64,000 nt of DNA from assembly GCA_001534745.1 (NCBI GenBank), contig CP013997.1:2046001-2110000 (forward strand). The letters run 5' to 3'. The notes under the pieces were generated by a model. The model saw only the letters and a program-made list of their open reading frames with translations, made no database searches and had not been told where the DNA came from. Both the position numbers and the translations under genes were made by a program. This document shows positions 1 to 14,320 of the stretch, piece after piece. Position 1 is the first letter of the stretch; the number at the start of each line of letters is the position of its first letter. Origin of the DNA: Pseudomonas monteilii. GTDB taxonomy: Bacteria; Pseudomonadota; Gammaproteobacteria; Pseudomonadales; Pseudomonadaceae.

Positions 1-567
1 AATGATCAAGGCCTCATAGACTTGCAGGTCTGGATGATCGATTCGACCGCTGTACGCGCTACCCGAGCCTCCTCAAGCGCCGGGAAAAAGGGGGCTGAAG
101 AACCTGCCGATCATGCTGTAGGCCGCAGTCGCGGCGGGCTGACTACCAAGATCCATAGGCTGTGTGATGCCCAAGGTGTGCCGCTACGCTTCGTGCTTTC
201 CGGCGGTCAGGCCAGCGACATTGCTTAGGCTCAGCCGCTTTTGGACGACGTCAGTATCCCTTCGAGCGGTTAAGGTCGTCCGCGCAAGCGATGCAAGTGG
301 CTGCTTGCCGACAAAGGCTACGACTGCGAAGCGCTGCGCTGCTGCTGTGACGATTATCGGATGAAATTGGTCATTTCACTGCGCTCGATGAAGCGCAAAC
401 CCAGATCTGGCTTGCCCCGGTTGATTGACCGACCCAAGTACCGTAAACGCGACACCATCGAGCGTATGTTTGGCTGGCTGAAAGAGAACCGCCGGATCGT
501 CACGCGCTTCGACAAGCTCGCAAAAATCTACGCCGCCATCAAAAAAATTTGGTCGCGACATTACTAA
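1..567 (+). pseudogene. IS5-family transposase remnant (two in-frame stops, 5' end outside window)
   Basis: Frame 1 is open from the first base and reads as the catalytic half of an IS5-type (IS427-like) DDE transposase: MIDSTAVRA, then GRSRGGLTTKIH, then a LLADKGYD block, then ERMFGWLKENRRI. The frame is broken by TAG at 226-228 and TAA at 271-273 without any frame change, so two nonsense mutations inactivated it. The last residues (after FDKLAKIYAA) no longer match the usual family ending, so the 3' end is also altered. It sits directly against the first small gene of the accessory island, whose Shine-Dalgarno begins only 5 bp after the remnant ends. The family call is from recognisable motifs; the exact IS cannot be named. 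Confidence 0.85.
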
Positions 568-585
568 GGCTGGAGGGTGTTAGAG

Positions 586-1188
586 ATGAAAGTTTTTAAA
601 ATAGTTAATATGCCTACGAGAGGGGGTATTATTTTTGGAGGTGATGAGGCCTATGTGGACAGCTGGCCTAGAAATCCCGAAGGTCAAGACCTTACGCTTA
701 TGTTTACTTTGGAGTGCACGGTCCTCAAGGAAAAATTGCAAAGGAACGATTTGCCATCACACGGGGTTTTACATGTCTTCTCGACGTATGATCCTGAAGA
801 GTATTTTCTTGATCTAATCACTTATGATCAAGTGAGCCAAAAAAAGGATTCGCCTTCTTACACATTCGCTGTGCACTCGAATTCACAGAAAACTTGCAAG
901 TCACCGTGTGCATCAATACCTCTGCAGTATGCGGATCTTGTTGAAGAAACGATCGACGATGAAGAAATAAGTGTAGCCTCTCTATTTGCTGACTATGCAC
1001 CCATTGGCGCAATGGTGCCCAAAAATATAGAGCGCCACTATAATTTTTTGTGCCAGATATATTCTTCAGATTTTCCAAGCCCATACGAAAATGCTTTTTA
1101 TCTGACAGGCGGTGTCGGATACCTTTTGATAAATAAAAATCTTGGGGATGAAAAGGCTGATGGTTGCTTTTTCGTACAGGTTGCTTAG
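586..1188 (+). CDS. DUF1963/YwqG-like small protein, possible immunity protein
   Basis: This 200-residue protein is acidic and AT-rich in codon use compared with the chromosome further right. Start ATG 586 is chosen because GGAGGG at 572-577 lies 8 bp upstream; an in-frame GTG at 577 overlaps that site. Family-like features are the segment LPSHGVLHVFS near residues 57-67, which resembles the 'LP..G.L.FF' block of DUF1963/YwqG proteins, and a C-terminal GGVGYLLINKN...DGCFFVQV block matching the end of that fold. YwqG-type proteins occur widely as uncharacterised or immunity-like genes next to polymorphic toxins. No signal peptide or membrane segment is seen. Gene real: fairly sure; family: moderate; function: inferred only from the island context. 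Confidence 0.65.
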   Translation: MKVFKIVNMPTRGGIIFGGDEAYVDSWPRNPEGQDLTLMFTLECTVLKEKLQRNDLPSHGVLHVFSTYDPEEYFLDLITYDQVSQKKDSPSYTFAVHSNSQKTCKSPCASIPLQYADLVEETIDDEEISVASLFADYAPIGAMVPKNIERHYNFLCQIYSSDFPSPYENAFYLTGGVGYLLINKNLGDEKADGCFFVQVA

Positions 1189-1392
1189 CAAGGATGATAA
1201 GCAAAAGCTGATGAGGTTTTAGTATGCTCCTGTTGGGTGCAAGCTTTATGATGATCATCAAAAAATGTAATGGCTGGGTACAAAGCGTAAACCTTTATAG
1301 TGTGGCGCTGATAAGGGATCATCTCATAGGTAGTGCTTGTCGAAATCGAATAGCAGCCCAACAGTGTTGTAAATCGTCGTCAGGAGACAACC

Positions 1393-1986
1393 ATGATCCC
1401 AGATAAATTTACTTGTCTGTTAAGTAAGGTGAAATGCAAGTTTACAGTAGATACTGATGATTTGAAAAGTTTTAGAAATCTTAAGGCATGTGCTGTGAGG
1501 TGGTCTGCAGGCCCGAGCATTGCAATCATGCCGTACGGCCTAGAGCTTGCAGGATTATCTCCATCGCCACTAACTATCCAGGAGCCAAAAAACAAAAAAA
1601 ACTGTTTCAAATACTACTATGATCATGAGATTTTAGTTGGCGTTGACGTGTATGGGGCGGGCGGGGACCAAATAGAGTGGGAGGTTTTTCAGTTGGATGG
1701 AAATGAAAGCTTCTGCTTGCGCCTTGATGACGATGATGAGGTAATTCGCGTTTCTGGCGTTGTGTACAGCAATGGTCGCCCAGAAATAGCGTGCCGCTTT
1801 GAGGAAGATGGAGAGTATTGGTGTTATGAGTATGAGTACGAAAGAGATCAAGCTGTTTCTATGCGTGTGTATGCAACCAATAGCGCTCCAGGCACAAGAA
1901 TATATATTGATAAGAAAGCTGAAGAGCTGGTGGGTCTTTACTTCTATAATGGATCATCAAAGGTTTATGTGTATAGGCGTAATTAG
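1393..1986 (+). CDS. Hypothetical protein, AT-rich island gene
   Basis: A 197-residue protein with a good start: AGGAGA at 1382-1386 lies 6 bp before ATG 1393. It is rich in Asp, Glu and Tyr, with runs such as LDDDDEV and YWCYEYEYERD in the middle, and has beta-rich character (short alternating hydrophobic segments ending in VGLYFYNGSSKVYVYR). No transmembrane segment, signal peptide or catalytic motif is visible. I do not recognise the family. Its size, acidity, low GC and position among immunity-type genes suggest an immunity protein, but this is inference. It is separated from its neighbours by about 200 and 360 bp, so it is probably transcribed alone. Confidence 0.55.
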   Translation: MIPDKFTCLLSKVKCKFTVDTDDLKSFRNLKACAVRWSAGPSIAIMPYGLELAGLSPSPLTIQEPKNKKNCFKYYYDHEILVGVDVYGAGGDQIEWEVFQLDGNESFCLRLDDDDEVIRVSGVVYSNGRPEIACRFEEDGEYWCYEYEYERDQAVSMRVYATNSAPGTRIYIDKKAEELVGLYFYNGSSKVYVYRRN

Positions 1987-2344
1987 CTTTGGGCTTGGGT
2001 GATCTAAGGTTCGTATGAGCGGTCAGCCTCTTGATGCAAGTCAGTGCAACCGTGGTCTCGAAGCTGTTCGCGAGTGGGATATTTCAACAGTACCAGTCTG
2101 ACGACTCCAGTCATTGAGGCAAGCGACGGACGAGTCGTGAAAGGGGGTTATCTCCTGCAAGCGTGATGCGTATTGAAATGCGCTAAGCACCAAGCGGGAC
2201 TTGAAAAAGACTGTTAGCATGAGAAGTTGATCAGAGAGGCTCCGTTGGTGTTGATATGAAATTATGTTATGCCACTGGAAGGACTAGGGCCTGCCTCTAT
2301 TACGTGCGGTGTATACTGCGAAAGCTAGAATCTTGGAGGTTTTT
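1987..2344. other. Intergenic gap, no supported gene
   Basis: About 358 bp without a convincing gene. A 28-codon ORF (ATG 2015 to TGA 2101, containing GLEAVREWDIS) could be the tail of a degraded gene, but it is too short to support. The second half is plain, and no REP element is present, unlike the gaps after 21 kb. Confidence 0.5.
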
Positions 2345-2692
2345 GTGATAGTTAAAATGGATTGTGAATATGATAAAAGTGATGCTGAAAGTACTTTGAT
2401 AGCATTCATGCGTAATATGAACGCTTGGGAAGTTTATTTTTATACAGTTAAGATGGAAAACTTAAGAAAAGGTGTGCACAGTTTGGATATCTATTCGGAT
2501 CATGTAAATTGGCTGGAGGATATATTAAGGGAGTTTTCTGCAGAAAGTAAAATGAATTGGGGGCGGCTGAGCGACATGGGGTGCATACGGCCTGCCACTT
2601 ATAACGTGGATCGAGATGATATATTACTGTCATCAAGAGATGAGAGAAAATCAATGTTAGGTGGCAAACATTTTGCAGAAGAAGGTGGATAA
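2345..2692 (+). CDS. Hypothetical small acidic protein
   Basis: A 115-residue protein. GTG 2345 is taken as the start because TTGGAGG at 2333-2339 lies 5-6 bp upstream; an earlier in-frame GTG at 2309 lacks such a site and ATG 2357 is four codons later. Visible features are an amphipathic N-terminal half (ESTLIAFMRNMNAWEVYFY) and an aromatic/acidic middle (SDHVNWLEDILREF). There are no membrane segments. The stop overlaps the next start as TAATG at 2690-2694, so the two genes are translationally coupled. Family not recognised; an immunity role is plausible only from context. Confidence 0.55.
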   Translation: MIVKMDCEYDKSDAESTLIAFMRNMNAWEVYFYTVKMENLRKGVHSLDIYSDHVNWLEDILREFSAESKMNWGRLSDMGCIRPATYNVDRDDILLSSRDERKSMLGGKHFAEEGG

Positions 2693-3258
2693 TGAAGCGA
2701 AGTGCGCTGTTGGAGCTATTTGCACCGGGCATTGTATTGTTTGACCCTGTGCAGCTTGCGGGGTTTGTGAAAAGCAAAGGACTCGCTGACACCAATATAT
2801 TTAATGCTTTTTTGGCAGAGGAAACACTCGGGCAGCAGGCGATTGAACAGGGAGTGGTTGTTCCTATATGTCAAATTACAGAACAAGACTATTTTGTTTT
2901 TGCAGAGTCTCAAAGTAGAGAAATGGCTTGCTTGCCGGAGCCGGCGTTTACGTATTCGGGAATCCCTTTGTCAATAGTATCTGGTGTATTGGTCGTGTCA
3001 GATCTGAATGCGCTGCTTGATTGGGATGAGGGTTTTTTCCTGAATTACAAAGCCACGTATGAGTGTAGGTTGCCGAATAATGATTATATTGAGGTCGAGC
3101 CTGGGATTTACAGCTTGTCCATCAGAGGCTACACAGGGCTCCAACAGTGTAGTTCTGGGCAAGGGTATGGGCTCGAATTTTTCGCTGTTCCACGTCTGCC
3201 TGTGATTGCGGACGGTGCTGATGTGAGCGATCTGGATTTTGAACTGACGAGTCTTTGA
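2692..3258 (+). CDS. Hypothetical protein coupled to the upstream small gene
   Basis: A 188-residue protein starting at ATG 2692, which overlaps the upstream stop codon (TAATG), with AAGGTGG a few bases upstream. The N-terminal half is hydrophobic/helical (LLELFAPGIVLFDPVQLAGFV), the C-terminal half is beta-like and acidic, ending in ADVSDLDFELTSL. No signal peptide, transmembrane helix or catalytic motif is evident. Family not recognised. Pairing with the 115-residue gene suggests that the two products act together or were inherited as a cassette. Codon use is AT-rich like the rest of 0.6-3.6 kb. Confidence 0.6.
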   Translation: MKRSALLELFAPGIVLFDPVQLAGFVKSKGLADTNIFNAFLAEETLGQQAIEQGVVVPICQITEQDYFVFAESQSREMACLPEPAFTYSGIPLSIVSGVLVVSDLNALLDWDEGFFLNYKATYECRLPNNDYIEVEPGIYSLSIRGYTGLQQCSSGQGYGLEFFAVPRLPVIADGADVSDLDFELTSL

Positions 3259-3605
3259 ATGCTACAGTCCTGACGCTTATTAGCACCACTGGGCATAGCT
3301 ATATGGATAAGGACATGACACGGAACGCCTTACGTCCACTGATTACGCTTCCTGAAAATCCTGTTGAAGCAGGCGCAAGACAGGTCTGGCCTAAGATCAA
3401 ACCTGGTCTGCCGTTTCCTGCTAACCATGAGGAGTTTGATTATTATGTGAAAGTTCAAGGCTTGAGTTATAGGGTTTCGGGCCAGCCATGTGTCGAGGTG
3501 GTGAGGTCAGCGCTGAAGCAGAAGCCCGAAGCTACCCTTACAGAATACACTGCGGCGTTGAATTATTACGCAGATCACGATACCGTCATGGGCGAGGGCT
3601 TTTAA
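3255..3605 (+). CDS. Short ORF before imm22; possible displaced toxin tip or degraded gene
   Basis: The open frame of 116 codons begins at a TTG overlapping the preceding stop; ATG 3303 is an alternative start but has no clear Shine-Dalgarno. The predicted protein lacks a convincing N-terminus and reads like the end of a larger protein (LPENPVEAGARQVWPKIKPGLPFPANHEEFDYYVKVQG...YYADHDTVMGEGF). It ends 28 bp before an Imm22 gene, the usual order for a toxin C-terminal domain followed by its immunity gene. I do not recognise a toxin family, and no catalytic motif is certain. It could equally be a small independent gene. Confidence 0.4.
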   Translation: MNATVLTLISTTGHSYMDKDMTRNALRPLITLPENPVEAGARQVWPKIKPGLPFPANHEEFDYYVKVQGLSYRVSGQPCVEVVRSALKQKPEATLTEYTAALNYYADHDTVMGEGF

Positions 3606-3633
3606 GTTTCATCATCTAGGCGAGGTCGACAAA

Positions 3634-4044
3634 ATGGATGCTTATGACATCGAGCGGTATCAGAAGATTCATGTGTGGGTAGGAAGCAATTTCTCTCCAG
3701 AAGAAGAGTATCTGAAATATTTCGAACTGGACTATACAGCCGATCTAGGCGATCCGGATTATAAAGTTTGTGGCTTTTGCAGGGACATCGGAACCGATTG
3801 GTATGATGAAGACTTTATCGGTATTATCCCTCGCAGAGAGCAGGAGATGAGTTTGGACGAAATTCTCTCAGAGTCATCTGTCGATCCTAGTGAGAAAAGC
3901 GCTTTGAAAACCGCCTGCCTGACGTTAGGCATAAACAAAGCCAACGCCATATTTTGGTATTCAGATGGCGGCACAGTGATTGCTGAGCCGATCCGGTCAG
4001 AGTATAACGGGTTACGCTATGTTGGGCTGTTTGAAGGGAATTGA
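3634..4044 (+). CDS. Immunity 22 (Imm22) family protein, copy 1
   Basis: A 136-residue acidic protein matching the Imm22 pattern along its whole length: an N-terminal KIHVWVGSNF block, the aromatic stretch EEYLKYFELDY, a VCGFCRDIG segment with two cysteines, the motif WYDEDFIGI, then a helix (SLDEIL...) and the C-terminal NGLRYVGLFEGN. Imm22 proteins are cytoplasmic antidotes encoded next to polymorphic toxins and are recognised by family membership rather than catalysis. GAGG lies about 10 bp before ATG 3634. A second copy follows at 4209. No intact cognate toxin is visible in the window; the short ORF just upstream is the only candidate remnant. Confidence 0.88.
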   Translation: MDAYDIERYQKIHVWVGSNFSPEEEYLKYFELDYTADLGDPDYKVCGFCRDIGTDWYDEDFIGIIPRREQEMSLDEILSESSVDPSEKSALKTACLTLGINKANAIFWYSDGGTVIAEPIRSEYNGLRYVGLFEGN

Positions 4045-4208
4045 ATAGGGAGAAGCGTACGGTTGTGTGACTTGAAATGCTTGGTGTTAGTTGCTCTTCA
4101 AGGTGTGTCGGTGTGTGCTTCAACGAGAGGAAGATGTTTAAGGCAATCTGGTGGAATGCCTGCGTCAGCATACCAAGGCGTGTATCAAATATACATCGGG
4201 AGGTAAAA

Positions 4209-4622
4209 ATGGAGCCGGACACACTGGAACAGTATGACAAGGTGCACGTATGGGTGGGTACGAATTTTTTGCCTGAAGGAGAATACCTGAGTTATTTCGA
4301 ACTGGATTACTCAGTTGATATCGATGATCCTGCCTACCAAGTGTGCGGGTTTTGCAAAGACCTTGGCGTTTCTTGGTATGACGAGGACTTCATGGGGATC
4401 ATGCAACGCAAGCCAGTGGAGGTCAGCCTCGATGAACTGCTGGTCGATTCAGCTGTTGACCGCGACCGTTTGCCCGATCTCAAAGCCCAATGCATGCATC
4501 TGGGTATTTTCAAGGCCAATACCATTCTATGGTACTCCGATGGGAGCGTGGAGGTCTCTGATACACCAGGCAAGCTCTATAATGGCTTGCAGTACATAGG
4601 CTTGTATGATGGAGAATCGTAG
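4209..4622 (+). CDS. Immunity 22 (Imm22) family protein, copy 2
   Basis: A 137-residue paralogue of the gene at 3634, with the same ordered blocks: KVHVWVGTNF, GEYLSYFELDY, VCGFCKDLG, WYDEDFMGI, SLDELL and NGLQYIGLYDG. The open frame extends back to 4077, but ATG 4209 is preferred because GGGAGGT at 4198-4204 precedes it by 4 bp and homology with copy 1 begins there. Differences between the copies concentrate in the helix after the WYDEDF motif and in the stretch before the C-terminal NGL block, as expected if the copies protect against different toxin variants. Likely cytoplasmic; cognate toxin not present. Confidence 0.87.
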   Translation: MEPDTLEQYDKVHVWVGTNFLPEGEYLSYFELDYSVDIDDPAYQVCGFCKDLGVSWYDEDFMGIMQRKPVEVSLDELLVDSAVDRDRLPDLKAQCMHLGIFKANTILWYSDGSVEVSDTPGKLYNGLQYIGLYDGES

Positions 4623-4805
4623 CGTGTGCTGAAAGACCATACGTTGACCTGCTGATTCACGGCTGCATCTAGGCTATGAACACGGCGCTCACGTACGCTT
4701 TTCGCCTGTCAGACTGTCCGTTGTGCGCCTGCAGTGCGGTTCCTCTCTTGAAGAAGGTTCAGGGCAGAGGGGGTGGGCTGGAGAAATATCTTGAAAGGAA
4801 TGACC

Positions 4806-5822
4806 ATGCATGGCAAAAAAGTTCAGTACATAACCACTAATGATTCAAGAGTGATTGCGAACGCTGTTCTCAAAGTGTCGGGAGTCGACATTGCCATGGC
4901 AGATTTCGATGCTGCAGAATTTGGCAGTGTGCAGAGAAAAGCACTGCTCAGTTGGAGCAGGGAAGAACAAGGTACCTACTATGGCGCCGCTGTGCGCAGC
5001 TCGAAGATCTCAGAGCGGGCACTGGATATCGAAGTGCGGGTGCCAGGGGACGTCAGTATAGACCTTGGCCCAGAAGAACTGGTCCTGGACAGTGGCCTGA
5101 TTGTTCAAGGTCGCTATGTGCTGTCAGTCGAAATCTACTTGGACATCCCATTGAAACATTTCGGCGAAGTCCCGGATCATATCAAGCCTCTATTGAAGTA
5201 CTCCCAGATTTTCCACGTTATCATCAGGCTTAGACGAGCGAGTGACCTGCCGTTGTGCATAAGCAAGGGACGAAATCCGGTGTACAACAGTTATGGCCAG
5301 CTGGGATTTTTCATAGCTGATCTTGAAAAAATGAACGCCTACATCATTTCCAGAGTGGGCGAAGGCGAAATCAATTTAAAAGACGCTTTTTGTGAGACTG
5401 AACTCGCTAACGAGTTATTCGAAGAGGGGCTTTTGATACTGGTGTGGGGCATGACGCCTACGGCATATTACGTATATGGGCTGGACAGTGCCGACGACAG
5501 AAATTTGGTACCAAGCATAGAACAGCCTCAGTTTACCGGCACGTACAAATTCAGGTCCGACGTACAGCATCCAAGCGTGGTGCCTGGAGAATATCTGCTT
5601 AACTGGCCTGCCTGCCTGAGTTCCGATTTTCCGAAAATGACGCTCGCTGGCAAGTGCGAATGGGTCCGCGTCGACGTGCACGTCATGGGCTATTATTACA
5701 TGGGTATTGGCACGGGGCCGAATTTCCCTGTCATCACGGCTTATCGGAGTGAGGGCATCGACACCGGGCAGCCGTTGCTCATGGTCGATATGGCATATGC
5801 TACGCCACAGTTGTGCTTCTGA
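4806..5822 (+). CDS. Hypothetical 338-residue protein in immunity island
   Basis: The largest gene of the island. ATG 4806 is preferred because AAAGGA ends 6 bp upstream; ATGs at 4773 and 4800 are in frame but badly placed for it. The protein is soluble-looking and beta-rich, with a middle block IYLDIPLKHFGEVPDHIKP, repeated short hydrophobic strands and a C-terminal region VRVDVHVMGYYYMGIGTGPN. No signal peptide, membrane helix, nucleotide-binding loop or nuclease motif is evident. Family not recognised. Placement between Imm22 and DUF4303 genes hints at an immunity or toxin-associated role, but nothing in the sequence proves it. Confidence 0.6.
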   Translation: MHGKKVQYITTNDSRVIANAVLKVSGVDIAMADFDAAEFGSVQRKALLSWSREEQGTYYGAAVRSSKISERALDIEVRVPGDVSIDLGPEELVLDSGLIVQGRYVLSVEIYLDIPLKHFGEVPDHIKPLLKYSQIFHVIIRLRRASDLPLCISKGRNPVYNSYGQLGFFIADLEKMNAYIISRVGEGEINLKDAFCETELANELFEEGLLILVWGMTPTAYYVYGLDSADDRNLVPSIEQPQFTGTYKFRSDVQHPSVVPGEYLLNWPACLSSDFPKMTLAGKCEWVRVDVHVMGYYYMGIGTGPNFPVITAYRSEGIDTGQPLLMVDMAYATPQLCF

Positions 5823-6074
5823 CCAAGCTGATTTCAGGGGTGCATGGTAAGCGATTACGGTCACTGCGATCTGTGCACAAACGTGAATGTGTTTATTGAT
5901 CGAAGGCATGAGGAAGCGAAAAGTTCAGCGGTCAAGGACAATAGGGCGACGCGTGCCGCTCAGAGGTGAGTCGATACGGTTCTTCAGTGAACCTGGTGGT
6001 ACTCGTAGACTAACACATGATAAAGTGCATCACAGGTTTGCGCTGAGACGTTAATGCACACAGAGAGATTGACA

Positions 6075-6605
6075 ATGGATTGGGATGGTCTCAAGGAACA
6101 CATTGCAGACGCTGTAATACAATCATTGCCTGAGTTGCTGGCCGCGCATTCAGGCGAGCACGTCTATGCGATTGCCTTGTACACGGACTCCAGTGCCATG
6201 ACGGTAGCATTGGCAGCAAATTCCTGGGAGGCACTGGAGATCAAACTAAGGGCAGAAGATGAACTGGATCGCCAAGATCTGGAAGCTGCCTATACGTGGG
6301 CGACTTCTGAGTGGGTCTATGAAGGGTGGGGCGGACAACACTTCGAACCTGTCTGTGAGCGTTTAAGGGAATCAGAGGCGCGTAGTGATTTCGACACCTT
6401 CAAGCAAACAGTGATCTCCTGCATGGTAGAAGCTCTTGAATGTGTCAGTAGAAAAGGGATTTTCGAGTCGATCTGTCATGTCAGGCCGATTCTATTCGTC
6501 AGTATGACTGACGATAACGCTGCCGAGGGCATTGAGAATTCATCGGCAAGAATGCTGAACTCGAATGAAGTGCTACACAAATTTCTGGCCCGGTATCAGG
6601 TGTGA
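6075..6605 (+). CDS. DUF4303 domain-containing protein
   Basis: A 176-residue protein resembling the DUF4303 family: MDWDGLKEHIADA at the start, then HVYAIALYTDSSAMTVALAANSWEAL, and the aromatic/acidic WATSEWVYEGWGGQHF block, followed by a helical C-terminus (DFDTFKQTVISCMVEALECV). ATG 6075 is chosen over 6054 because GAGAG lies 8 bp upstream and the family starts with this tryptophan-containing helix. DUF4303 proteins are small, cytoplasmic, of unknown biochemical role, and often lie beside polymorphic toxin or SUKH genes. It stands alone with gaps of about 250 and 220 bp on either side. Confidence 0.72.
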   Translation: MDWDGLKEHIADAVIQSLPELLAAHSGEHVYAIALYTDSSAMTVALAANSWEALEIKLRAEDELDRQDLEAAYTWATSEWVYEGWGGQHFEPVCERLRESEARSDFDTFKQTVISCMVEALECVSRKGIFESICHVRPILFVSMTDDNAAEGIENSSARMLNSNEVLHKFLARYQV

Positions 6606-6823
6606 TGGACCACGCTCAAGATTTTTTGATGTTGGCTAACGCTTTCTGACTGATCTCGAGCTTTTCTACAGCTTAAAACGTGAGCTACCCTATGAGCTTC
6701 TTTTGTCTTGTAGCTCACGGGCAGTGCTAGAGAAAGACTCGGTCATGGATATATTCAGGCTGCCGTATACTCCAGAGGTGACCCCTTCGCCTTTGGAGGC
6801 GACAGAACCCTTAAGGATGAAAA

Positions 6824-7294
6824 ATGAGCTATCTTGACACATTGGCTTTTGAAATACAGGCGAGTGGTGAAGAACCTGCTTATTCGGGCGGCGCTGCAGA
6901 CGGCATGATTGCGCAGTTTGAAGAAGCATTGGGCGTAGCATTTCCCGACGCTTACAAATACTTTCTCAAGACATACGGTGCTTTGTCATTTGCTGGCGAT
7001 ACGTATTATGGGATCACGGGAAGCGGCCTGACGGCCAGGGAGGTGCCCTGTGTGGCGTTCGCCACTCAAACCGCTCGCAGGGAAGGCGATGCCGATAGTT
7101 CCATGATCGTGATCATGACGTCCGGTTATGGTCCGATCTATTCCATTGATACTTCGATCATAGGGGGGACGGGTGAGCCCGTCATAATCGAGACACCGCT
7201 TTCATTCAAACGCACTGGCGAGAAGATCATTATTTACCAAAGTTTCGAAGCGTTTTTCACGGATATGATTCGAAGCGCTATCCGGGAGCTTTGA
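6824..7294 (+). CDS. SMI1/KNR4 (SUKH) family immunity-type protein
   Basis: A 156-residue SUKH-fold protein. The family signature is the helix-strand block IAQFEEALGVAFPDAYKYFLKTYGALSF at residues 29-56, corresponding to 'e..lg..lP..y..fl..nGg', followed by the beta-rich centre and a closing helix YQSFEAFFTDMI. SUKH proteins are common immunity proteins against nuclease and other polymorphic toxins and act in the cytoplasm. AAGGA at 6813-6817 lies 6 bp before ATG 6824. It is the most divergent of the three SUKH genes here; the other two (8348 and 8973) are closer to each other. Confidence 0.85.
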   Translation: MSYLDTLAFEIQASGEEPAYSGGAADGMIAQFEEALGVAFPDAYKYFLKTYGALSFAGDTYYGITGSGLTAREVPCVAFATQTARREGDADSSMIVIMTSGYGPIYSIDTSIIGGTGEPVIIETPLSFKRTGEKIIIYQSFEAFFTDMIRSAIREL

Positions 7295-7423
7295 GGTCTT
7301 GGATACGCTTGCCGTTTCAAGCAAAAAGCGCTGGCTTTCGGTCAGGGCCGTTCGCGTCCATAACTCAATCGTCGACATAGATACATGCCTCTCTTGCCTT
7401 CTAATGCCAGAGAGGAAGCGGCA

Positions 7424-7756
7424 ATGAGCACTTCAGATAAAGGGGAAATTATGCAGACTTTCAATGGTTTCGAGGCATTGCTACGTCATGTCGATCGACT
7501 GCCTGAGACAGGCTGGATCTTTGTTGAGGGCAATGGGGATTTTGAATCTCCCAGTTCGATCATGGCGGCCACCTACTATTTGGCAGACACCGAAGTTGAA
7601 GAAATCACTCTGGAAAAGAGTAAAAGAACATTTGTGGAAGCCCCTACTCTACAGGATATCGTGTCCACTCTAGACCTGAGGCCGACTACTCAGCAGGTGA
7701 GTGACTATATAGAGGCGGTAATCTATTATCGTGTCAATGACGATTTTCTCGACTGA
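7424..7756 (+). CDS. Small protein resembling DUF7716
   Basis: A 110-residue acidic protein. ATG 7424 has GAGGAAG 6 bp upstream; ATG 7451 (AGGGGA upstream) is nearly as good. The pattern LPETGWIF near the N-terminus, PTLQDIVSTLDLRP in the second half and the ending AVIYYRVNDDFLD resembles a family I remember as DUF7716 (LP..W.., a 'LQDIV' helix, then YY..DAF at the C-terminus). Members are small uncharacterised proteins frequently near immunity genes. Family call is from memory and moderate; function unknown. Confidence 0.55.
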   Translation: MSTSDKGEIMQTFNGFEALLRHVDRLPETGWIFVEGNGDFESPSSIMAATYYLADTEVEEITLEKSKRTFVEAPTLQDIVSTLDLRPTTQQVSDYIEAVIYYRVNDDFLD

Positions 7757-7871
7757 TAGAGAGCATCCAGCGCCAGCGCCATGCTTCGAACGGTACCCCT
7801 TCGACTGGACGGCGCGTGCTTTCGGCTCGCTGTTGAGATGTATTCAACATTGGAAGCAACAAAGGACCGTG

Positions 7872-8246
7872 ATGAAACAATACACGAGGGTTGACGTAGA
7901 GCGCAGGATACACACCGAGGGTTTCTTTGAGGCTGTCATTGCGAGCGTGGAGGACTGGAATGCGCTGCTCGCTCAGCGCGACGACGAACGTTTCGATACC
8001 GAATGGTGTTCTTCGTACCAGGCCCTGCTAAACATTCCATACCGGTCCCTCGAAGATGAGGAGGCGGCTGCAAGGTTTCGGGAGCATGTGTTCAAAAAGG
8101 TATTTGCCCTAACAGGAAGCTCAGAGGTGTCTGGGTATATCTCCGATGATTTCGGTTTGATCATGGACGCTGTTCTGAAGGCGTCCGATAACGCCTGGGC
8201 AAGCCTGATGTTCAGTAATTATATCGAAGGGGTGTTCCCTCATTGA
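7872..8246 (+). CDS. Hypothetical 124-residue protein
   Basis: The open frame extends back to 7731, overlapping the previous gene, but ATG 7872 is chosen because AAAGGA lies 5 bp upstream and the extra N-terminus looks non-coding. The protein is mostly helical and acidic (EDWNALLAQRDDERFDTEW, DEEAAARFREHVFKKVFAL, ISDDFGLIMDAVLKASDNAW). No membrane segment or known motif is seen. It is one of the run of small genes here in the same direction, consistent with another immunity-type gene, but the family is not recognised. Confidence 0.5.
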   Translation: MKQYTRVDVERRIHTEGFFEAVIASVEDWNALLAQRDDERFDTEWCSSYQALLNIPYRSLEDEEAAARFREHVFKKVFALTGSSEVSGYISDDFGLIMDAVLKASDNAWASLMFSNYIEGVFPH

Positions 8247-8347
8247 TCGTGTGTCTCGCCCATGGAAAGCCATGTCATCCCGCGTCACGTATTGCGCCCT
8301 TCAGGCCCCTGTGGCAACGTGTTCATCCCGACAGTTTCGGTATACCC

Positions 8348-8839
8348 ATGATCACGCTGTCACGCTCCGATCCAGCGATTCACTCCTCCGATATCGCAGC
8401 GCTCGAAACACAGATTGCTGCTCGCTTGCCTGCTTCATTCAAACAGTTGTTCCTGTCATACAACGGCGGCGTTCCTAACAAAGATTGCTGGGAAGGTGAT
8501 GACGACCATGACGTGATGCGAGTGAAAAAATTCAAGGCCCTATCGCCATCTGGCGCACAGGATGCGTCGGAAACCAGGTACCTTGGCGGATGCTACGCCA
8601 GGATGACGGAACGGCAGGTCGTGCCGATGACACTGCTGCCTTTTGCGATCGATGAAGGCGGTAATTTCTTCTGTCTCGACGTGGTTGACGGGAGCGTCTG
8701 CTTCTATGCGACTGATTCGTTCGATCCTGATTCGACGGTTGCCGACAATCAACGGCACGCCTATCGTCGGCTGGCTGAGACCTTTGACAGCTTCTTGTCT
8801 GGATTGAAGGATGAGTCGGAGATCGATGTGTGGGAGTAA
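8348..8839 (+). CDS. SMI1/KNR4 (SUKH) family protein, tandem copy A
   Basis: A 163-residue SUKH protein with the N-terminal block ALETQIAARLPASFKQLFLSYNGGVPNKDCWEGD, the middle VVPMTLLPFAIDEGGNFFCLD and a final helix ETFDSFLSGL. It shares the rare CW after the 'NGG.P' turn and the LPFA.DE..NF.C motif with the next gene, so the two are paralogues. ATG 8348 fits the family length; the frame extends to 8243 but the extra residues look unlike SUKH. No good Shine-Dalgarno is visible, so the start is tentative. Probable cytoplasmic immunity protein. Confidence 0.83.
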   Translation: MITLSRSDPAIHSSDIAALETQIAARLPASFKQLFLSYNGGVPNKDCWEGDDDHDVMRVKKFKALSPSGAQDASETRYLGGCYARMTERQVVPMTLLPFAIDEGGNFFCLDVVDGSVCFYATDSFDPDSTVADNQRHAYRRLAETFDSFLSGLKDESEIDVWE

Positions 8840-8972
8840 CGTCCAGATTTCAGCATCGTATGCGGGACAGCGCCCACCTGCACCGAGGCGAAAGGCCATG
8901 CAGGCTTAATTTTTATGATGTCAGTTTCAAAAAATGGGTTTCGGGATTCTGTATCTTGAGCGAGCTTTTGAA

Positions 8973-9479
8973 ATGAGAAAAGAAAAATTATTCTTATCCA
9001 TGGGTGATAACCCTGTCGAATTGTCAGATATCAGAAAAGTCGAAAGCGTCTTGGCATTTACTTTCCCTGATGAATTCAAGTCATTATATCTGGATTGTAA
9101 TGGAGGTGCTCCAAGTCGACAGTGCTGGAATGAGGATGTTGATTATGAGCCTATCTTGGTCGAGTCCTTCAAGCCAATTGAAGCTGGTAGTCGTATGCTC
9201 GATGGTGATACTTCGCACCTTGTTGGTTTCGTTCTGAGTATGCAGGAAAAAAAGGTGGTGCCTTCACATATTTTGCCTTTTGCTGTGGATGAGGCTAATA
9301 ACTTCATCTGCTTCGAAAAAAACTCAGGTAAGGTGCTGTATTTTGCAGTCGATGTGTTTCGTCCTGATGTTGAAATGGCTGTCAATCATTTGGCCGCACA
9401 GAAAATCTTGTCGGAATCATTCAAGGAATTTTCTGAATCTCTGTGTCTTGGTGAAGAAGAGGGCGACGAAGAAGATTGA
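8973..9479 (+). CDS. SMI1/KNR4 (SUKH) family protein, tandem copy B
   Basis: A 168-residue SUKH protein paralogous to the gene at 8348: VESVLAFTFPDEFKSLYLDCNGG, then APSRQCWNEDVDYEP, then VVPSHILPFAVDEANNFICF, then the closing helix SESFKEFSESL and an acidic tail EEEGDEED. ATG 8973 is preferred over 8934 because of family length, although the Shine-Dalgarno is weak for both. Codon use is visibly more AT-rich than copy A, so the two copies were probably acquired separately rather than by a recent local duplication. Probable immunity protein. Confidence 0.82.
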   Translation: MRKEKLFLSMGDNPVELSDIRKVESVLAFTFPDEFKSLYLDCNGGAPSRQCWNEDVDYEPILVESFKPIEAGSRMLDGDTSHLVGFVLSMQEKKVVPSHILPFAVDEANNFICFEKNSGKVLYFAVDVFRPDVEMAVNHLAAQKILSESFKEFSESLCLGEEEGDEED

Positions 9480-9550
9480 TAGGTCACCATAGCAACGCGC
9501 TGGGCATTGACCGCATTTGCTGCAAGTACGCCCTAGTGGGCGAGCTTCGC

Positions 9551-9708
9551 ATGATTGATCGCTGGATCAGCGGTGGCGAAACTCTTTGTTCCGTTACGAT
9601 ATCGATGCGCACACCAGTAAGGCCGTCGATGAGCATGTTCACAGGTTACAGGTCTACTCCAACACCGACCACCGTTTCATCACCTCTATCGATGTGATCT
9701 TGGAATAA
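9551..9708 (+). pseudogene. Gene fragment with probable 1-base deletion, possible toxin C-terminus
   Basis: Two overlapping frames join into one plausible protein end. In one frame 9551 onward reads MIDRWISGGE, and in the -1 frame 9580 onward reads NSLFRYDIDAHTSKAVDEH and then VHRLQVYSNTDHRFITSIDV before TAA 9706-9708. Restoring one A near 9579-9581 would fuse them. The protein-like quality of the second part (clean aromatic/charged pattern, proper stop) suggests the real tail of a lost gene. Its place between SUKH immunity genes and a convergent membrane protein makes a displaced polymorphic-toxin tip a reasonable guess; the family is not recognised. Confidence 0.4.
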
Positions 9709-10390
9709 AAAATCGACCTATCAAGGATTTGGCGCGCCTTTCGTTGATGCTTTCGATGTCCATAAACGTGTATCGGAATTTTTTTCTCTTCTCTAATATC
9801 TTCAATTGCTTGTAGGCTAAAATATTATACCGGTGATAAAACACCAGGAACGCCGAAATTGCAATAAAAAAGCAAACCAATCCCGATGGGGTTGCATCGT
9901 GGTCTTTCAAAATCGGATAACACATCCCTCCTATCACCGCCGCAAACCCTCCATGCCATCCTTTGGTTTGCAATGGGCGTTCCACAGACTCGACGCGCTT
10001 CCCTTCGAAGCGCAGTGAGGAATTTTTACCAGCGCTTCCTAAGGTGTAGATTGCAAGGTACAAAAGTACAACCAGGCCCACAGGCAGCGACGCAAAAAAT
10101 AAGGACGTGCTTGGGCTCAATTTCGAGATTTTGTAAGCGATAGCAAGTATGAGTAACGACGCGAATAAGGGCGCAAACGCTAGGTTAAATAAGAGCTGAT
10201 GGCCTGCGTACGTGATGAAATGTTGTGTTCTATAAGCACAGTGGACGCTCCATGATGTCATCGCCACGACAACGGCCGTTGCCGGATACACCATGCCTGA
10301 TGGACCTGATCCAACCATGAGGAGGGATATCATCACGATCAGAAACCATCCGGCTACTATATTTGCAAAAAAACGCTCTGTCGTGAACAT
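9686..10390 (-). CDS. Hypothetical inner-membrane protein
   Basis: A 234-residue protein on the minus strand with about six predicted hydrophobic segments: near residues 8-26 (FANIVAGWFLIVMISLLMV), 35-48, 62-85 (two close helices around APLFASLLILAIAY), 97-118 (FFASLPVGLVVLLYLAIYTL), 145-160 and 166-185 (GLVCFFIAISAFLVFYH). The C-terminus is basic and probably cytoplasmic (KILEKRKKFRYTF). It is the only minus-strand gene in the island and its stop overlaps the broken fragment at 9551-9708. No family recognised. A membrane immunity protein (against a pore former or periplasm-acting toxin) is possible. Confidence 0.6.
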   Translation of the reverse strand: MFTTERFFANIVAGWFLIVMISLLMVGSGPSGMVYPATAVVVAMTSWSVHCAYRTQHFITYAGHQLLFNLAFAPLFASLLILAIAYKISKLSPSTSLFFASLPVGLVVLLYLAIYTLGSAGKNSSLRFEGKRVESVERPLQTKGWHGGFAAVIGGMCYPILKDHDATPSGLVCFFIAISAFLVFYHRYNILAYKQLKILEKRKKFRYTFMDIESINERRAKSLIGRFFIPRSHR

Positions 10391-10781
10391 AGGTTCGACG
10401 TTCTCCAGTCCGCTACCGCTTCCCAGCCAATTGTATCATTGCCTATAACACACTAAGTTGCACGACCTGCTGAGTTACAAATGTCACCACTGGATGACAG
10501 GGGTCGATGCTACAAGCATTGAAACGGAATTAAAACCTGAAGAGGCCCTGCCTGACAGTTGTCACGGTCCATCGCGATGAAAAGCAAGCGACAAAGCAAT
10601 TCTTGCTGCAACGTCATATTGAGAGCGTCGATGCTGCGTTCTGCTACTGATCACCTGCTCTACAGGCCGCACGTCAGACCTTTCGGTTACTGCCCCGCCC
10701 TTGACGCGAACGATAATATGATCAAACTGGCAACGCCCGATTCCAGCGTCCAATGCCCGTGAAGGGAGATGAAGTGTTCCC
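10391..10781. other. Intergenic gap, no supported gene
   Basis: About 390 bp between the minus-strand membrane protein and the plus-strand small gene. An open frame at 10559-10762 has no protein-like composition until its last third (ANDNMIKLATPDS), which could be a gene remnant but is too short to claim. The gap presumably contains both divergent promoters; no REP element is seen. Confidence 0.45.
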
Positions 10782-11096
10782 ATGGCCGACAAGAACATTA
10801 TGCTCAACGCATTTCTCACCAGAATCGAACACCTTGAAGGCGATGACGAATGCCTCGAGCCCATCAAGCCTACCCTCACGGCATTGTCCAATGACGTCTT
10901 GAGCCACACCGACACGCCTGACAACGCCTTCCTGCTCTCACGCTTCGAGCACTGCATGCATGAAATCAACGCCTTCGAAGACTCGATCGAAACCGTTGAA
11001 AGGGAGTCGATCCTCGAGTTCCTGTACGCATTAGGGGACGCCGTGGGTCTCCCGAGCGACGACGACTACCTGGAAGCCTGGCGCGGCGATTGGTAG
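10782..11096 (+). CDS. Hypothetical small acidic protein
   Basis: A 104-residue, strongly acidic, helical protein (LTRIEHLEGDDECLEPIKP, ERESILEFLYALGDAVGLPSDDDYLEAW). GGGAG lies 13 bp upstream of ATG 10782, a long spacing, so the start is not certain. No membrane segment. The small size, low pI and neighbouring DUF6386 remnant fit an immunity-type protein, but I do not recognise the family. Confidence 0.5.
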   Translation: MADKNIMLNAFLTRIEHLEGDDECLEPIKPTLTALSNDVLSHTDTPDNAFLLSRFEHCMHEINAFEDSIETVERESILEFLYALGDAVGLPSDDDYLEAWRGDW

Positions 11097-11224
11097 GCGC
11101 CATAGATCCGGCATGCCCTCGATCCCTCGATACGATCACCTCGCAGGCCTCGCATTCCACGACACAGGCGCATGCTACCGCCTCGCAAACCCAGTCCAAC
11201 CCGACAAAACCTACCCAACTCCCC

Positions 11225-11679
11225 GTGACCCTCGAATTCCACCTGCACACCGACACAGCCACCCTGGCCATCTTCGACACACAAGCGGTACGCTACCGCC
11301 TGGACGACACCTGCGATTGGTGGAGCCTCCCGCACGACGAGCTACTGGAAATCAACGCGGGCGCCATCGCCTTCCTGAATCTGCCGAGCGACGGCACGTA
11401 CCCGATCAGGGTCCAGGCGTCGCTGACGAACGAGGAGGCAGCGTGTACCTGCGCGTGCCCTCGGGTCAGGTCTTCATCGGATCAGGCGAGGACACCACCG
11501 GAGGCGGTCTGGAGCCCGACAGTTCCGACGTGAACCAGGGACAGTTCATCACCCTCGACAAGGGCACCTATTGCATGCGCTACAAAGGAGAGGCGGGCAT
11601 CATTCACCTGGCCTTTTCACCGGCCATGACCTGCTGCAACCACCTTACCGACGCCATCAGATTGCCAATGCCGCATTGA
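11225..11679 (+). pseudogene. DUF6386 family gene, frameshifted
   Basis: Two frames together encode a DUF6386-like protein. The first half reads HTDTATLAIFDTQAVRYRLDD and WWSLPHDELLEINAGAIAF then NLPSDGTYPIRVQ; the second half, in the -1 frame, reads GGSVYLRVPSGQVFIGSGED and continues to TGA 11677-11679. The change of frame is at about 11430-11436, where one missing G in a GAGGAG run would restore ...TNE-GGSVYL.... The start is uncertain: GTG 11225 fits the family, with an open frame reaching further upstream. DUF6386 genes are small, of unknown function and often near T6SS/Rhs toxin loci. A sequencing error at the G run is the main alternative to a real mutation. Confidence 0.65.
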
Positions 11680-11711
11680 CGACCTGCGACAGCGCCCTCT
11701 GGCGCTCGTCC

Positions 11712-12626
11712 TCACACACTGTCCGGATCCCCGAAGAACACCTGAATCCGCGACCGCAACCACCGCTCCGCCGGGTCATTGTCCTGCGCCCCACGCCAGG
11801 CCATGTGCAACTCGAACGCCCCCACCTCGATCGGCGGCTCCTCCGCCCGCAGTCCACCCGCTGCCGTCAGCACCTCCGCCGTATAGTCCGGCACCGTCGC
11901 CAGGATGTCCGTCCCCGCGAGCAGGCTCCCCAGCCCGTTGAACTGTGGCACCGCCAGCACCACGTGACGCTTGCGCCCGATCGTGTCCAGCGCCTCGTCG
12001 ATGAACCCCGACAGGTCCCCGGCGAACGACACCAGCGCATGGGGCCGGGCACAGAAGTCGTCCAGGGTGATCGCCCCGGGCACGCTGTCGGCACGCAACA
12101 ACTTGGCCCGGCTGCGCCGCAGCACCTTGCGCTTGGCGTTGGCCGGCAGGTCGGCGGTGTAGCTCACGCCCACCGAGATCTCGCCCGAGGCGAGCAGGGC
12201 GGGCATCAACAGGTAGTTGACGCGGCGCACCACCAGCACGATGCCGGGGGCTTCGGCGCGGATGCGCTTGAGCAGCAGCGGCAGCAGGGCGAACTCGACG
12301 TCGTCCGACAGGCCGATGCGAAACACCGCGGTGCTGGTGGCCGGGTCGAACTCGGCGGCGCGGCTGACGGCGGTGGAGATCGAGTCCAGGGCCGGGGAGA
12401 GCAAGGCGAAGATCTCCTGGGCGCGGGCCGAAGGTTCCATGGTGCGGCCGGTGCGCACGAACAGCGGGTCGTCGAACAGGTTGCGCAGGCGCGACAGGGC
12501 CGCACTGATCGCCGGCTGGCCGAGGAACAGCTTTTCCGCAGCGCGGGTCACGCTGCGCTCGTGCATCAGGGTCTCGAACACAATCAGCAGGTTGAGGTCT
12601 ACACGACGCAGGTCGTTACGGTTCAT
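11712..12626 (-). CDS. LysR-family transcriptional regulator
   Basis: A 304-residue LTTR with the winged helix-turn-helix at residues 9-66 (DLNLLIVFETLMHERSVT, then AAEKLFLGQPAISAALSRLR, ending DPLFVRTGRTMEPS, the NodD/NahR-like form) and a two-subdomain effector-binding region afterwards. It is divergent from the MDR oxidoreductase at 12837 with a 210-bp shared intergenic region, the usual LysR arrangement, so it probably controls that gene and itself. The inducer cannot be predicted. The gene ends 32 bp from the end of the frameshifted DUF6386 gene, marking the right edge of the accessory island; GC and codon use from here on are typical of the chromosome. Confidence 0.92.
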   Translation of the reverse strand: MNRNDLRRVDLNLLIVFETLMHERSVTRAAEKLFLGQPAISAALSRLRNLFDDPLFVRTGRTMEPSARAQEIFALLSPALDSISTAVSRAAEFDPATSTAVFRIGLSDDVEFALLPLLLKRIRAEAPGIVLVVRRVNYLLMPALLASGEISVGVSYTADLPANAKRKVLRRSRAKLLRADSVPGAITLDDFCARPHALVSFAGDLSGFIDEALDTIGRKRHVVLAVPQFNGLGSLLAGTDILATVPDYTAEVLTAAGGLRAEEPPIEVGAFELHMAWRGAQDNDPAERWLRSRIQVFFGDPDSV

Positions 12627-13859: not shown

Positions 13860-14320
13860 GCCCTCTGCGCGCGCATCGGCCAGCGGCAGGCATTGCCCCT
13901 GGTCGAGCAGTGTGCTCGTTTCCTTTCATAGAACGCGTGATGCGTGTCTTATCTCTTCCCTGAGAAATTTCCTACAGCACAATAAGTAATTGCCGATAGG
14001 CTAAGTGGCAAACTTTAAGTGCGCTTTTTGTTATTGTCGGCCCATTGAAAAAGTCTGAATGAAAGTTGGCCGATAATACCCGTCTGAATGGTTTTTTTAC
14101 CGTGATCTGTATCTGTTATTCCTGCCTCGAGAATCGATAATGGCCCCGTGATAGCCGTCGGCCAGGCCGCGAAAGGCGCGGGCTGGGTCGAATGAAGGCC
14201 GCAAGTCGATTACCGCTGTCTCGGCCACGATGCGCCTGAGATGGCTCGTTTTCGAAGAGCGCTTTCATTCAATGACGTGTCGCGTGAAGAGCGAGCCCAG
14301 CTGCCAAGGAGGTGCATGAC
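13860..14320 (+). promoter_or_regulatory. Long AT-rich leader with direct repeats upstream of the 14321 unit
   Basis: A 461-bp gap with a distinctly AT-rich core (about 13930-14110) in a GC-rich neighbourhood, indicating a regulatory region. Short direct repeats are visible: GTCTGAATG at 14053-14061 and again at 14082-14090 (29 bp apart), and TGCCGATA at 13991-13998 with GGCCGATA at 14068-14075. MocR/GntR regulators often bind direct repeats, and the regulator encoded at 15631 is a candidate. A TTGAAA at 14045 and GATAAT at 14072 are present, but their 21-bp spacing is too long for a confident promoter call. Confidence 0.45.

What the first reader, a model, noticed from the sequence alone, without database searches (positions are those of the whole stretch)
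577..11679. Orphan immunity-gene array without an intact toxin
Seen: at least nine small acidic genes run in one direction in lower-GC DNA, among them two Imm22, three SUKH, one DUF4303, one DUF7716-like and one DUF6386 gene, with a transposase remnant at the left edge and gene fragments inside. Known: these families protect against polymorphic toxins, and orphan arrays of them are thought to give resistance against neighbours' toxins. Inference: this is a stockpile of immunity genes, and the unrecognised genes between them (1393, 2345/2692, 4806, 7872, 9686, 10782) are good candidates for new immunity families.
Basis: partly seen in the sequence, partly recalled or inferred. Interest (0 to 1): 0.75.

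Follow-up and report, generated by a model that had tools for sequence, protein, structure and literature searches.

The report
Rhs toxin locus's immunity-only tail
The genes are the far end of a long bacterial weapons locus where old toxin pieces have decayed while many of their antidote genes stayed intact, probably because they protect against related strains that still carry the old toxins.

Summary
The small acidic genes are real, but "without an intact toxin" is an effect of the window edge. Left of the window in this complete Pseudomonas genome lie type VI secretion genes, vgrG, two Eag-type chaperone genes and an intact PAAR-Rhs toxin gene (1395 aa, AHH nuclease tip), then about 40 kb of displaced Rhs fragments, toxin tips and immunity genes. 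The finding is the last 11 kb of that tail: immunity genes and one Rhs scrap (9476-9693). Rhs-core content falls along the tail from 0.47 to 0.01. Two P. entomophila strains have the tail at the same site with single-gene differences and another tip on the front Rhs; the Rhs of 6C6 is headless. Each strain keeps intact homologues (51-94%) of the front immunity genes of the other two. dN/dS is 0.09-0.44, but broken copies score equally low. Whole-genome searches place three Pfam-less genes (1393, 2692, 4806) directly behind Rhs tips elsewhere: new immunity families. Evidence for 7872 is weaker; 10782 is a second gene of a module; 9686 is a different, vgrG-linked protein. The process is known (C-terminal displacement, polyimmunity loci). 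Protection is inferred, not shown.

The parts
1..567 (+). Transposase remnant, broken frame (IS5-type is recalled)
   Evidence: DDE_Tnp hits for 361-564 below cut-off; eight further places in the genome, three of them inside the array left of the window
586..1188 (+). DUF1963 immunity gene
   Evidence: Pfam above cut-off; homologue 416-419 bp behind an Rhs tip in L052; dN/dS 0.10 and 0.13 against two sister strains
1393..1986 (+). Gene A: new immunity family, no Pfam
   Evidence: 7 non-self hits in 298 genomes: 4 directly behind an open tip of one AHH-type family (two of these hits are weak, E 2e-4 and 8e-4), 1 behind a decayed copy, 1 near an Rhs remnant, 1 with no Rhs in the flanks
2345..2692 (+). 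Imm-NTF2-like gene (below Pfam cut-off)
   Evidence: weak homologue (E 3e-4) 418 bp behind an Rhs tip with an Endonuclea_NS_2 domain in L078
2692..3258 (+). Gene C: new immunity family, no Pfam; model resembles ComJ weakly
   Evidence: directly behind an Rhs tip in L115 and L118; AlphaFold pLDDT 76.8; top two Foldseek hits are ComJ, prob 0.97 and 0.93 but E 0.03; dN/dS 0.27
3255..3605 (+). DUF7716-like gene (below cut-off; only its C-terminal part is found in the sister strains)
3634..4044 (+). Imm22 copy a
   Evidence: Pfam E 1.8e-21; 397 bp behind an Rhs tip in L054; open here, in-frame stop in both sister strains
4209..4622 (+). Imm22 copy b
   Evidence: Pfam; 71% identical to the protein encoded directly behind the full-length front Rhs of strain 4A7
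4806..5822 (+). Gene D (338 aa): new immunity family, no Pfam
   Evidence: directly behind the same kind of Rhs tip in L053, L070/L092 and twice in L091; behind a decayed copy in L052/L094; paralogue left of the window behind half of such a tip
6075..6605 (+). DUF4303 immunity gene
   Evidence: Pfam 1e-25; homologues 360-371 bp behind Rhs tips in L074, L061, L080
6824..7294 (+). SUKH_6 immunity gene
   Evidence: Pfam; homologues 379-380 bp behind Rhs tips in L061 and L062, the L062 tip being an LHH nuclease; frame broken in strain 4A7
7424..7756 (+). DUF7716 gene
   Evidence: Pfam above cut-off; orthologue in 4A7, none in 6C6; no toxin linkage found
7872..8246 (+). Gene E: probable immunity family, no Pfam
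   Evidence: 1 of 5 non-self hits directly behind an Rhs tip (L110)
8348..8839 (+). SUKH immunity gene a
   Evidence: Pfam; about 410 bp behind a WHH-nuclease Rhs tip in L052 and behind a tip in L066
8934..9479 (+). SUKH immunity gene b
   Evidence: Pfam; present in 4A7, not found in 6C6
9476..9693 (+). Decayed Rhs-core remnant, the only one detected inside the window block
   Evidence: blastx E 3e-9, blastn 70% over 211 columns E 5e-26
9686..10390 (-). Gene F: basic, hydrophobic-looking protein linked to vgrG/Rhs loci
   Evidence: pI 9.97; homologues 3-15 kb upstream of Rhs heads, same strand, in 5 of 7 non-self genomes, weak ones (E 1e-9 to 1e-6) in two of the five
10782..11096 (+). Gene G: DUF4844-like, second gene of an Rhs immunity module
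   Evidence: follows the gene x9_16717 in L120, L122, L123; no Rhs link in the other three non-self genomes
11090..11679 (+). DUF6386 gene, frame split in the window
   Evidence: two Pfam pieces; one ORF in 4A7; 50% identical ORF directly behind gene A in an Rhs array, L101
11712..12626 (-). LysR regulator: chromosomal border of the array
   Evidence: matched in 99 of 99 genus genomes; same border in 4A7 and 6C6

Best explanation
The block is the distal, immunity-only tail of a VgrG-Eag-PAAR-Rhs locus of a type VI secretion system. Shown by sequence: an intact Rhs toxin gene heads the locus; behind it lie displaced tip/immunity modules, modules whose tip is broken but whose immunity gene is open, and at the far end immunity genes alone. 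Inferred: new tips entered by recombination in the shared Rhs core, each pushing the previous tip and its immunity gene downstream; old cores and tips then decayed, while many immunity genes were kept by selection because related strains still carry the old toxins. Each protein would act in the cytoplasm by binding and blocking one kind of incoming Rhs nuclease tip.
For: Locus left of the window: T6SS genes, vgrG, two DcrB/DUF1795-type genes, PAAR-Rhs with AHH tip. Rhs-core fraction per fifth of the tail: own 0.47, 0.42, 0.28, 0.08, 0.01; 4A7 0.62, 0.59, 0.39, 0.22, 0.05; 6C6 0.37, 0.20, 0.00, 0.03, 0.00. Broken tips are followed by an open full-length immunity ORF in 8 of 9 cases, intact tips in 9 of 9. 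Same tail at the same site in 4A7 and 6C6, with a different tip on the front Rhs in each. Each of the three strains holds an open homologue of the other two strains' front immunity genes, 51-94% identical. dN/dS 0.09-0.44 in the 22 of 23 comparisons where it is defined. 11 of 24 non-own homologue places lie 330-470 bp behind a tip, against 49 of 405 ORFs of the same loci.
Against: No expression or protection data. Low dN/dS does not separate working from broken copies: comparisons with copies that are broken in a sister strain (Imm22a with a stop in both, SUKH6 frameshifted, D reduced to a fragment in 4A7) give 0.09-0.26 as well, so the constraint may be old. Synonymous divergence of most array genes (0.27-0.64; extremes 0.11 and above 1.2) exceeds that of LysR (0.15-0.17), so the block has probably recombined. 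The front Rhs of 6C6 lacks its first 49 residues, vgrG and both Eag genes, because about 17 kb are missing there or misjoined, so that toxin is probably not delivered. 7716b, E, SUKHb and F have no or weak toxin linkage. 51-74% identity to a kin immunity protein need not mean cross-protection.
Confidence: 0.76

Rival explanations
1. The block is decaying debris: displaced immunity genes that persist only until deletion and do nothing.
For: Several genes are broken or missing in one or both sister strains, the DUF6386 frame is split here, and transposase debris lies in the array. Broken copies show dN/dS as low as open ones. PMC5727410 (passages) suggests pseudogenisation as a possible eventual fate of orphan immunity genes.
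Against: Upper 95% limits of dN/dS are 0.90 or less in the 22 comparisons where the ratio is defined. Rhs cores and tips have all but vanished from the block while 16 ORFs stay open. 10 of 15 plus-strand starts have a Shine-Dalgarno-like motif by a loose pattern without a chance control.
Confidence: 0.18
2. It is a mobile acquired interbacterial defence island (AID/rAID-like), gathered by a recombinase rather than left behind by toxin displacement.
For: Many unrelated immunity families side by side in low-GC DNA; gene content differs between strains.
Against: None of the 8 integrase (PF00589) matches in the genome lies between 2010000 and 2058000; the block runs on from an Rhs locus at a fixed site beside LysR.
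Confidence: 0.03
3. It is a cassette store: modules kept as raw material for swapping new tips onto the front Rhs, with protection a by-product.
For: Left of the window two intact displaced tips remain (11638-12021 and 14163-14492 of the joined own locus), and tip swapping onto the main rhs is reported in Salmonella (PMC3967940, passages).
Against: The window block holds no detected toxin tip and almost no Rhs core to recombine with, so this cannot explain keeping these genes.
Confidence: 0.03

Closest known systems
Rhs loci with orphan CT/immunity modules (Salmonella, PMC3967940; Snodgrassella, PMC5727410; passages read)
   Same: Complete rhs gene with immunity gene at the 5' end, then truncated rhs fragments with tips and immunity genes; in Snodgrassella immunity genes without their toxin but never the reverse; in Salmonella a displaced tip of one serotype is the main tip of another.
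   Different: Here the tail is about 40 kb long and ends in a block of about 16 immunity genes with almost no Rhs left; core content falls along it in three strains.
T6SS immunity gene arrays of Vibrio cholerae (PMC5361080; outline with abstract, and section 13 read)
   Same: Orphan immunity genes at the 3' end of a T6SS cluster, matching cognate genes of other strains; displacement model.
   Different: That section describes an array of six immunity genes; here the array is longer, mixed in family, and sits behind an Rhs toxin.
Heterogeneous polyimmunity loci (PMC3482391; passages read)
   Same: Tandem immunity genes of unrelated families without toxin cassettes between them, mostly one orientation, variable between strains.
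   Different: That paper says recombinases lie beside several such loci and might build them; here the block grades into an Rhs displacement array and no integrase lies in it.
Serratia Rhs1 orphan immunity proteins (PMC10539506; passages read)
   Same: Orphan Rhs immunity genes without their tip, behind an intact Rhs/immunity pair; one shown to protect against another strain.
   Different: Two genes there; the protection shown there has not been tested here.
K1-T6SS vgrG1-eagR1a-eagR1b-tke2 locus of P. putida KT2440 (PMC5363822; passages read)
   Same: Same order: vgrG, two DUF1795 genes, PAAR-Rhs.
   Different: The passages read mention no immunity tail; the sequences were not compared.

Membership tests
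Rhs C-terminal displacement array | Full-length PAAR-Rhs gene with immunity gene at the 5' end | tested here: met
   L009:3204-7391, 1395 aa, PAAR, RHS, AHH; Imm11-family gene behind it
Rhs C-terminal displacement array | Downstream truncated Rhs cores with tips and immunity genes | tested here: met
Rhs C-terminal displacement array | Different tips on the same core at the same site in kin | tested here: met
   three strains, three front tips; the 6C6 Rhs is headless
[quoted passage not shown]
   met for the window block; not met for the whole locus, which holds toxin tips
Heterogeneous polyimmunity locus | Same orientation and small gaps | tested here: inconclusive
   15 of 16 on one strand; gaps -4 to 391 bp
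Heterogeneous polyimmunity locus | Recombinase nearby (in several cases, not required) | tested here: not met
   0 of 8 integrase matches in the array
T6SS immunity gene array | Orphan immunity genes behind a T6SS effector-immunity pair, similar to cognate genes of other strains | tested here: met
T6SS immunity gene array | Protection against the matching effector | not testable with these tools
   needs a bench test
rAID / AID island | Recombinase-associated mobile array | tested here: not met
   fixed site beside LysR in three strains
Imm22 (PF14112) | Score above Pfam cut-off | tested here: met
   77.6 and 62.7 bits, cut-off 27
SUKH (PF09346/PF14568) | Score above Pfam cut-off | tested here: met
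   three genes
New immunity families (1393, 2692, 4806) | Gene directly behind a toxin tip in several genomes | tested here: met
   1393: 4 of 7 hits behind an open tip; 2692: 2 of 5; 4806: 2 of 5 loci of the genome-contig scan, plus L053
New immunity families (1393, 2692, 4806) | Neutralises that tip | not testable with these tools
   needs co-expression in E. coli
ComJ-like fold (gene 2692) | Structural match to ComJ | tested here: inconclusive
   top two Foldseek hits 4mqd_B and 4mqd_A, prob 0.97 and 0.93, but E 0.03 and TM 0.27-0.43

The most novel reading that the evidence does not exclude
Heterogeneous polyimmunity loci, whose building has been ascribed to recombinases, can be the eroded far ends of Rhs displacement arrays: cores and toxins decay while antidotes are held by selection from kin that still carry the old toxins, so that strains of one species group cover each other's weapons; a strain that has lost its Rhs head and T6SS genes (6C6) would then live on the antidotes alone. 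Genes C, D and E would be three immunity answers to one Pfam-less toxin superfamily with a GHH motif.
Probability: 0.4. Interest if true: 0.65.

Novelty: new member of a known kind. Interest (0 to 1): 0.5.

Why it matters
Whether orphan immunity genes are useful armour or junk is an open matter, and direct tests are few. This locus shows the stages from complete toxin gene to antidote-only in one chromosome, and related strains carry other tips at the same site. The orphan set predicts which neighbour the strain should survive, so single-gene deletions can test the idea. It also gives three immunity families absent from Pfam, with toxin partners, and a toxin-tip superfamily for which no Pfam or NCBIfam model was found among the tips tested.

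Tried and rejected
A DNA search of the genus with the whole block listed, apart from this genome, only LysR matches; because three candidates at most per genome were scored and the list was cut, it is no evidence of absence, and I replaced it by protein searches. The five relatives first fetched at the LysR border share no DNA to its left apart from two short transposase-like matches; the genes there differ in the three of them that I listed.

I first took the front Rhs of all three strains as deployed toxins. 

PADLOC gave one weak hit, for a SUKH gene, and none for the other nine proteins sent (ten of sixteen were sent). Sequence search of solved structures gave nothing convincing for A, C or D. 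The model of D is poor (mean pLDDT 63) and has no PDB match at E 0.001; I draw nothing from it. A relation between C and the second half of D is only suggested (hhalign E 0.004, probability 8%). Promoter- and terminator-like sites are no more frequent than in shuffles. The count of own immunity genes found intact (32 of 33) is biased, since the queries were own ORFs; one own TPR gene was called broken only because two tandem copies were merged.


Full report
What is there. The window is 2046001-2110000 of a complete 4.71 Mb genome. The genus is Pseudomonas, judged from the record titles of close matches; the nearest loci found are in strains labelled P. entomophila 6C6 and 4A7. From 577 to 11679 there are 16 genes plus a DUF6386 gene with a split frame; 15 of the 16 point one way and 15 of 16 proteins are acidic.

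The toxin is outside the window. The 56 kb to the left hold T6SS genes (TssF, TssG, a gp25-like protein and a ClpB/ClpV-like ATPase), then vgrG, two DcrB/DUF1795-type genes (the first scores just below the Pfam cut-off), and a 1395-aa PAAR-Rhs gene with an AHH nuclease tip followed by an Imm11-family gene. Behind it tblastn with this Rhs finds many core fragments, the last at window 9589-9693. A more sensitive search extends that scrap to 9476-9693 (blastx 3e-9; blastn 5e-26) and finds no convincing toxin-tip remnant in the window block (best E 0.83). So the block is continuous with an Rhs locus and ends at a LysR gene that 99 of 99 genus genomes match.

A graded tail. Cut into fifths from the front module to LysR, the Rhs-core share is 0.47, 0.42, 0.28, 0.08, 0.01 here; 0.62, 0.59, 0.39, 0.22, 0.05 in 4A7; and 0.37, 0.20, 0.00, 0.03, 0.00 in 6C6. 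Recognisable tips are intact in 3 of 8 places here, 4 of 7 in 4A7 and 2 of 3 in 6C6, front ones included. All 9 intact tips are followed by a full-length open immunity gene; of the 9 broken tips, 8 are. These eight are not independent: three are one ComJ-linked tip type and two another (x9_16717-linked). The own immunity queries are own ORFs, so intactness of the own genes is partly by construction.

Kin comparison. Searches recovered the same tail at the same site in 4A7 and 6C6; the T6SS genes left of it match at 95%. The distal order Imm22a, Imm22b, D, E, SUKHa, G, LysR is shared, with D only a fragment in 4A7, G partial in both, and an extra SUKHb-like gene between the two Imm22 genes of 4A7. 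At E 1e-6, 6C6 shows no A, NTF2, DUF4303, SUKH6, 7716b, SUKHb or F; 4A7 shows no C or F. Imm22a has an in-frame stop in both relatives, and the SUKH6 frame is broken in 4A7. Each strain has a different tip on its front Rhs. In 4A7 that gene is complete (1405 aa, with vgrG and Eag genes before it) and an Imm22 follows it, 71% identical to the orphan Imm22b here and 74% to that of 6C6. In 6C6 a ComJ follows the front tip; this genome has two ComJ copies (94% and 92%) behind broken copies of that tip, and 4A7 has one (92%). This genome's own Imm11-family protein has open homologues in 4A7 (82%) and 6C6 (51%). But in 6C6 about 17 kb are missing: vgrG, both Eag genes, several T6SS genes and the first 49 Rhs residues. 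Unless this is a misassembly, the 6C6 toxin is probably not delivered. Whether identities of 51-74% give cross-protection is untested.

Selection. dN/dS is 0.09-0.44 in the 22 of 23 array comparisons where it is defined, with bootstrap upper limits of 0.90 or less; LysR gives 0.03. The 23 include two halves of SUKH6 and a D fragment. Two caveats weaken the inference. Comparisons with copies that are broken in a sister strain (Imm22a, SUKH6, the D fragment) give equally low values (0.09-0.26), so the ratio reflects past constraint and cannot show that the orphans work now. And array synonymous divergence is mostly 0.27-0.64 (extremes 0.11 and above 1.2) against 0.15-0.17 for LysR, so the block has probably recombined and timing is uncertain.

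What the unknown genes are. Rhs heads of this kind were found in 31 of 298 genus genomes, this one included. I asked for 40 stretches, nearly all behind these heads, and got 37, one of them only 844 bp; four heads near contig ends were not requested. Among these loci, 11 of 24 non-own homologue places of window genes (E up to 1e-10) start 330-470 bp behind a tip; 49 of 405 non-Rhs ORFs of the same loci do, many of which are themselves likely immunity genes, and uniform placement would give 0.9%. Because those loci were chosen for Rhs, I also searched whole genomes. Gene A (1393): 7 non-self hits in 298 genomes; four directly behind an open tip of one AHH-type family (in L103 with a frame break in the core before it; in L106 and L107 the hits are weak, E 2e-4 and 8e-4), one behind a decayed copy of that tip, one near an Rhs remnant, one with no Rhs in the 1.5 kb flanks. 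Gene C (2692): 5 non-self hits; two directly behind a tip, one (a partial match) behind a tip and another gene, one in an orphan cluster with Rhs scraps, one with none. Gene D (4806): 2 of 199 genus genomes including this one; 5 loci in the genome-contig scan, of which two have the intact tip directly upstream (L091 twice over, and L092), one a decayed tip, two none; L053 adds another intact pair. Gene E (7872): 5 non-self hits, one directly behind a tip, one near an Rhs remnant, one 3.9 kb behind a tip, one beside a DUF4303 gene, one with nothing. Gene G (10782): hits in 6 non-self genomes; in two it is the second gene behind a tip, in a third it follows the same partner gene, in three there is no Rhs link in the flanks and the matches of two are partial. 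Gene F (9686): hits in 7 non-self genomes of 199 searched; in five a homologue lies 3-15 kb upstream of an Rhs head on the same strand (strong in G037, G077 and G103; weak in G131 and G056, whose best hit is on another contig), in one it lies inside an Rhs array, in one no head was found. F may be an immunity protein of another vgrG-linked effector; this is inference. DUF6386 also occurs in such arrays: a 50% identical ORF lies directly behind gene A in L101.

The tips paired with C, D and E form one superfamily (hhalign probability 96.5%, E 9e-10, D tips against the other four) with a GHH motif. Five of these tips have no Pfam match and three no NCBIfam match; the tip paired with E was not sent. 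GHH is recalled as a signature of HNH/EndoVII-type nuclease toxins; no call showed it. The AlphaFold model of C (pLDDT 76.8) has ComJ as its top two Foldseek hits (probability 0.97 and 0.93, but E 0.03 and TM at most 0.43), which is suggestive only.

What is known. C-terminal displacement with orphan tips is described for Salmonella (PMC3967940, passages) and Snodgrassella, where orphan immunity genes are traced to pseudogenised toxins (PMC5727410, passages). T6SS immunity arrays formed by displacement are described for Vibrio cholerae (PMC5361080, outline with abstract and section 13). Polyimmunity loci are defined in PMC3482391 (passages). Protection by an orphan Rhs immunity protein was shown in Serratia (PMC10539506, passages). 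PMC12247911 (passages) reports positive selection on gut orphan immunity genes, which contrasts with the constraint seen here. The vgrG-eagR-eagR-PAAR-Rhs order matches K1-T6SS of P. putida KT2440 (PMC5363822, passages), but sequences were not compared. By title, none of the listings, several of them capped, showed a paper on this locus.

Verdict. A known mechanism in an unusually complete example: a new member of a known kind, with three new immunity families and testable predictions between related strains.

Noticed in passing
L098/L099 (strain 6C6), joined position about 18349: Sequence matching genome 1996297 joins directly to 2013351: vgrG, both Eag genes, several T6SS genes and the first 49 Rhs residues are missing, yet the immunity tail is kept.
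   Followed up: partly
genome 2143397-2144599, right of the window; downstream stretch L077: A second PAAR-Rhs head in the same genome (61% identical N-terminus), with an Imm11-like gene and two copies of the x10_13559 family behind it.
   Followed up: partly
L011:15632-19988: Tandem family of about five small ORFs (roughly 150-190 aa) that look like membrane proteins, plus a 343-aa ORF, on the minus strand between the T6SS genes and vgrG; the three small ones sent and the 343-aa ORF have no Pfam match, and 2.8 kb of this region is absent from 4A7.
   Followed up: partly
window 1-567 and three places left of it: Transposase debris is concentrated in the array: 4 of 9 genome places matching window 1-1200, the query's own included, lie inside it.
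   Followed up: no
L053:3505-3930, L066:1325-1711, L115:900-1277: A GHH-motif Rhs toxin-tip superfamily without Pfam or NCBIfam match.
   Followed up: partly
L010:7086-7526, 15060-15954; L053:1611-2507: TPR-repeat genes in tandem behind an Rhs tip, apparently another immunity type.
   Followed up: no
L091:1-7008: Two tandem rhs-tip-D modules in strain 4A7, with tip stop and D start overlapping.
   Followed up: partly
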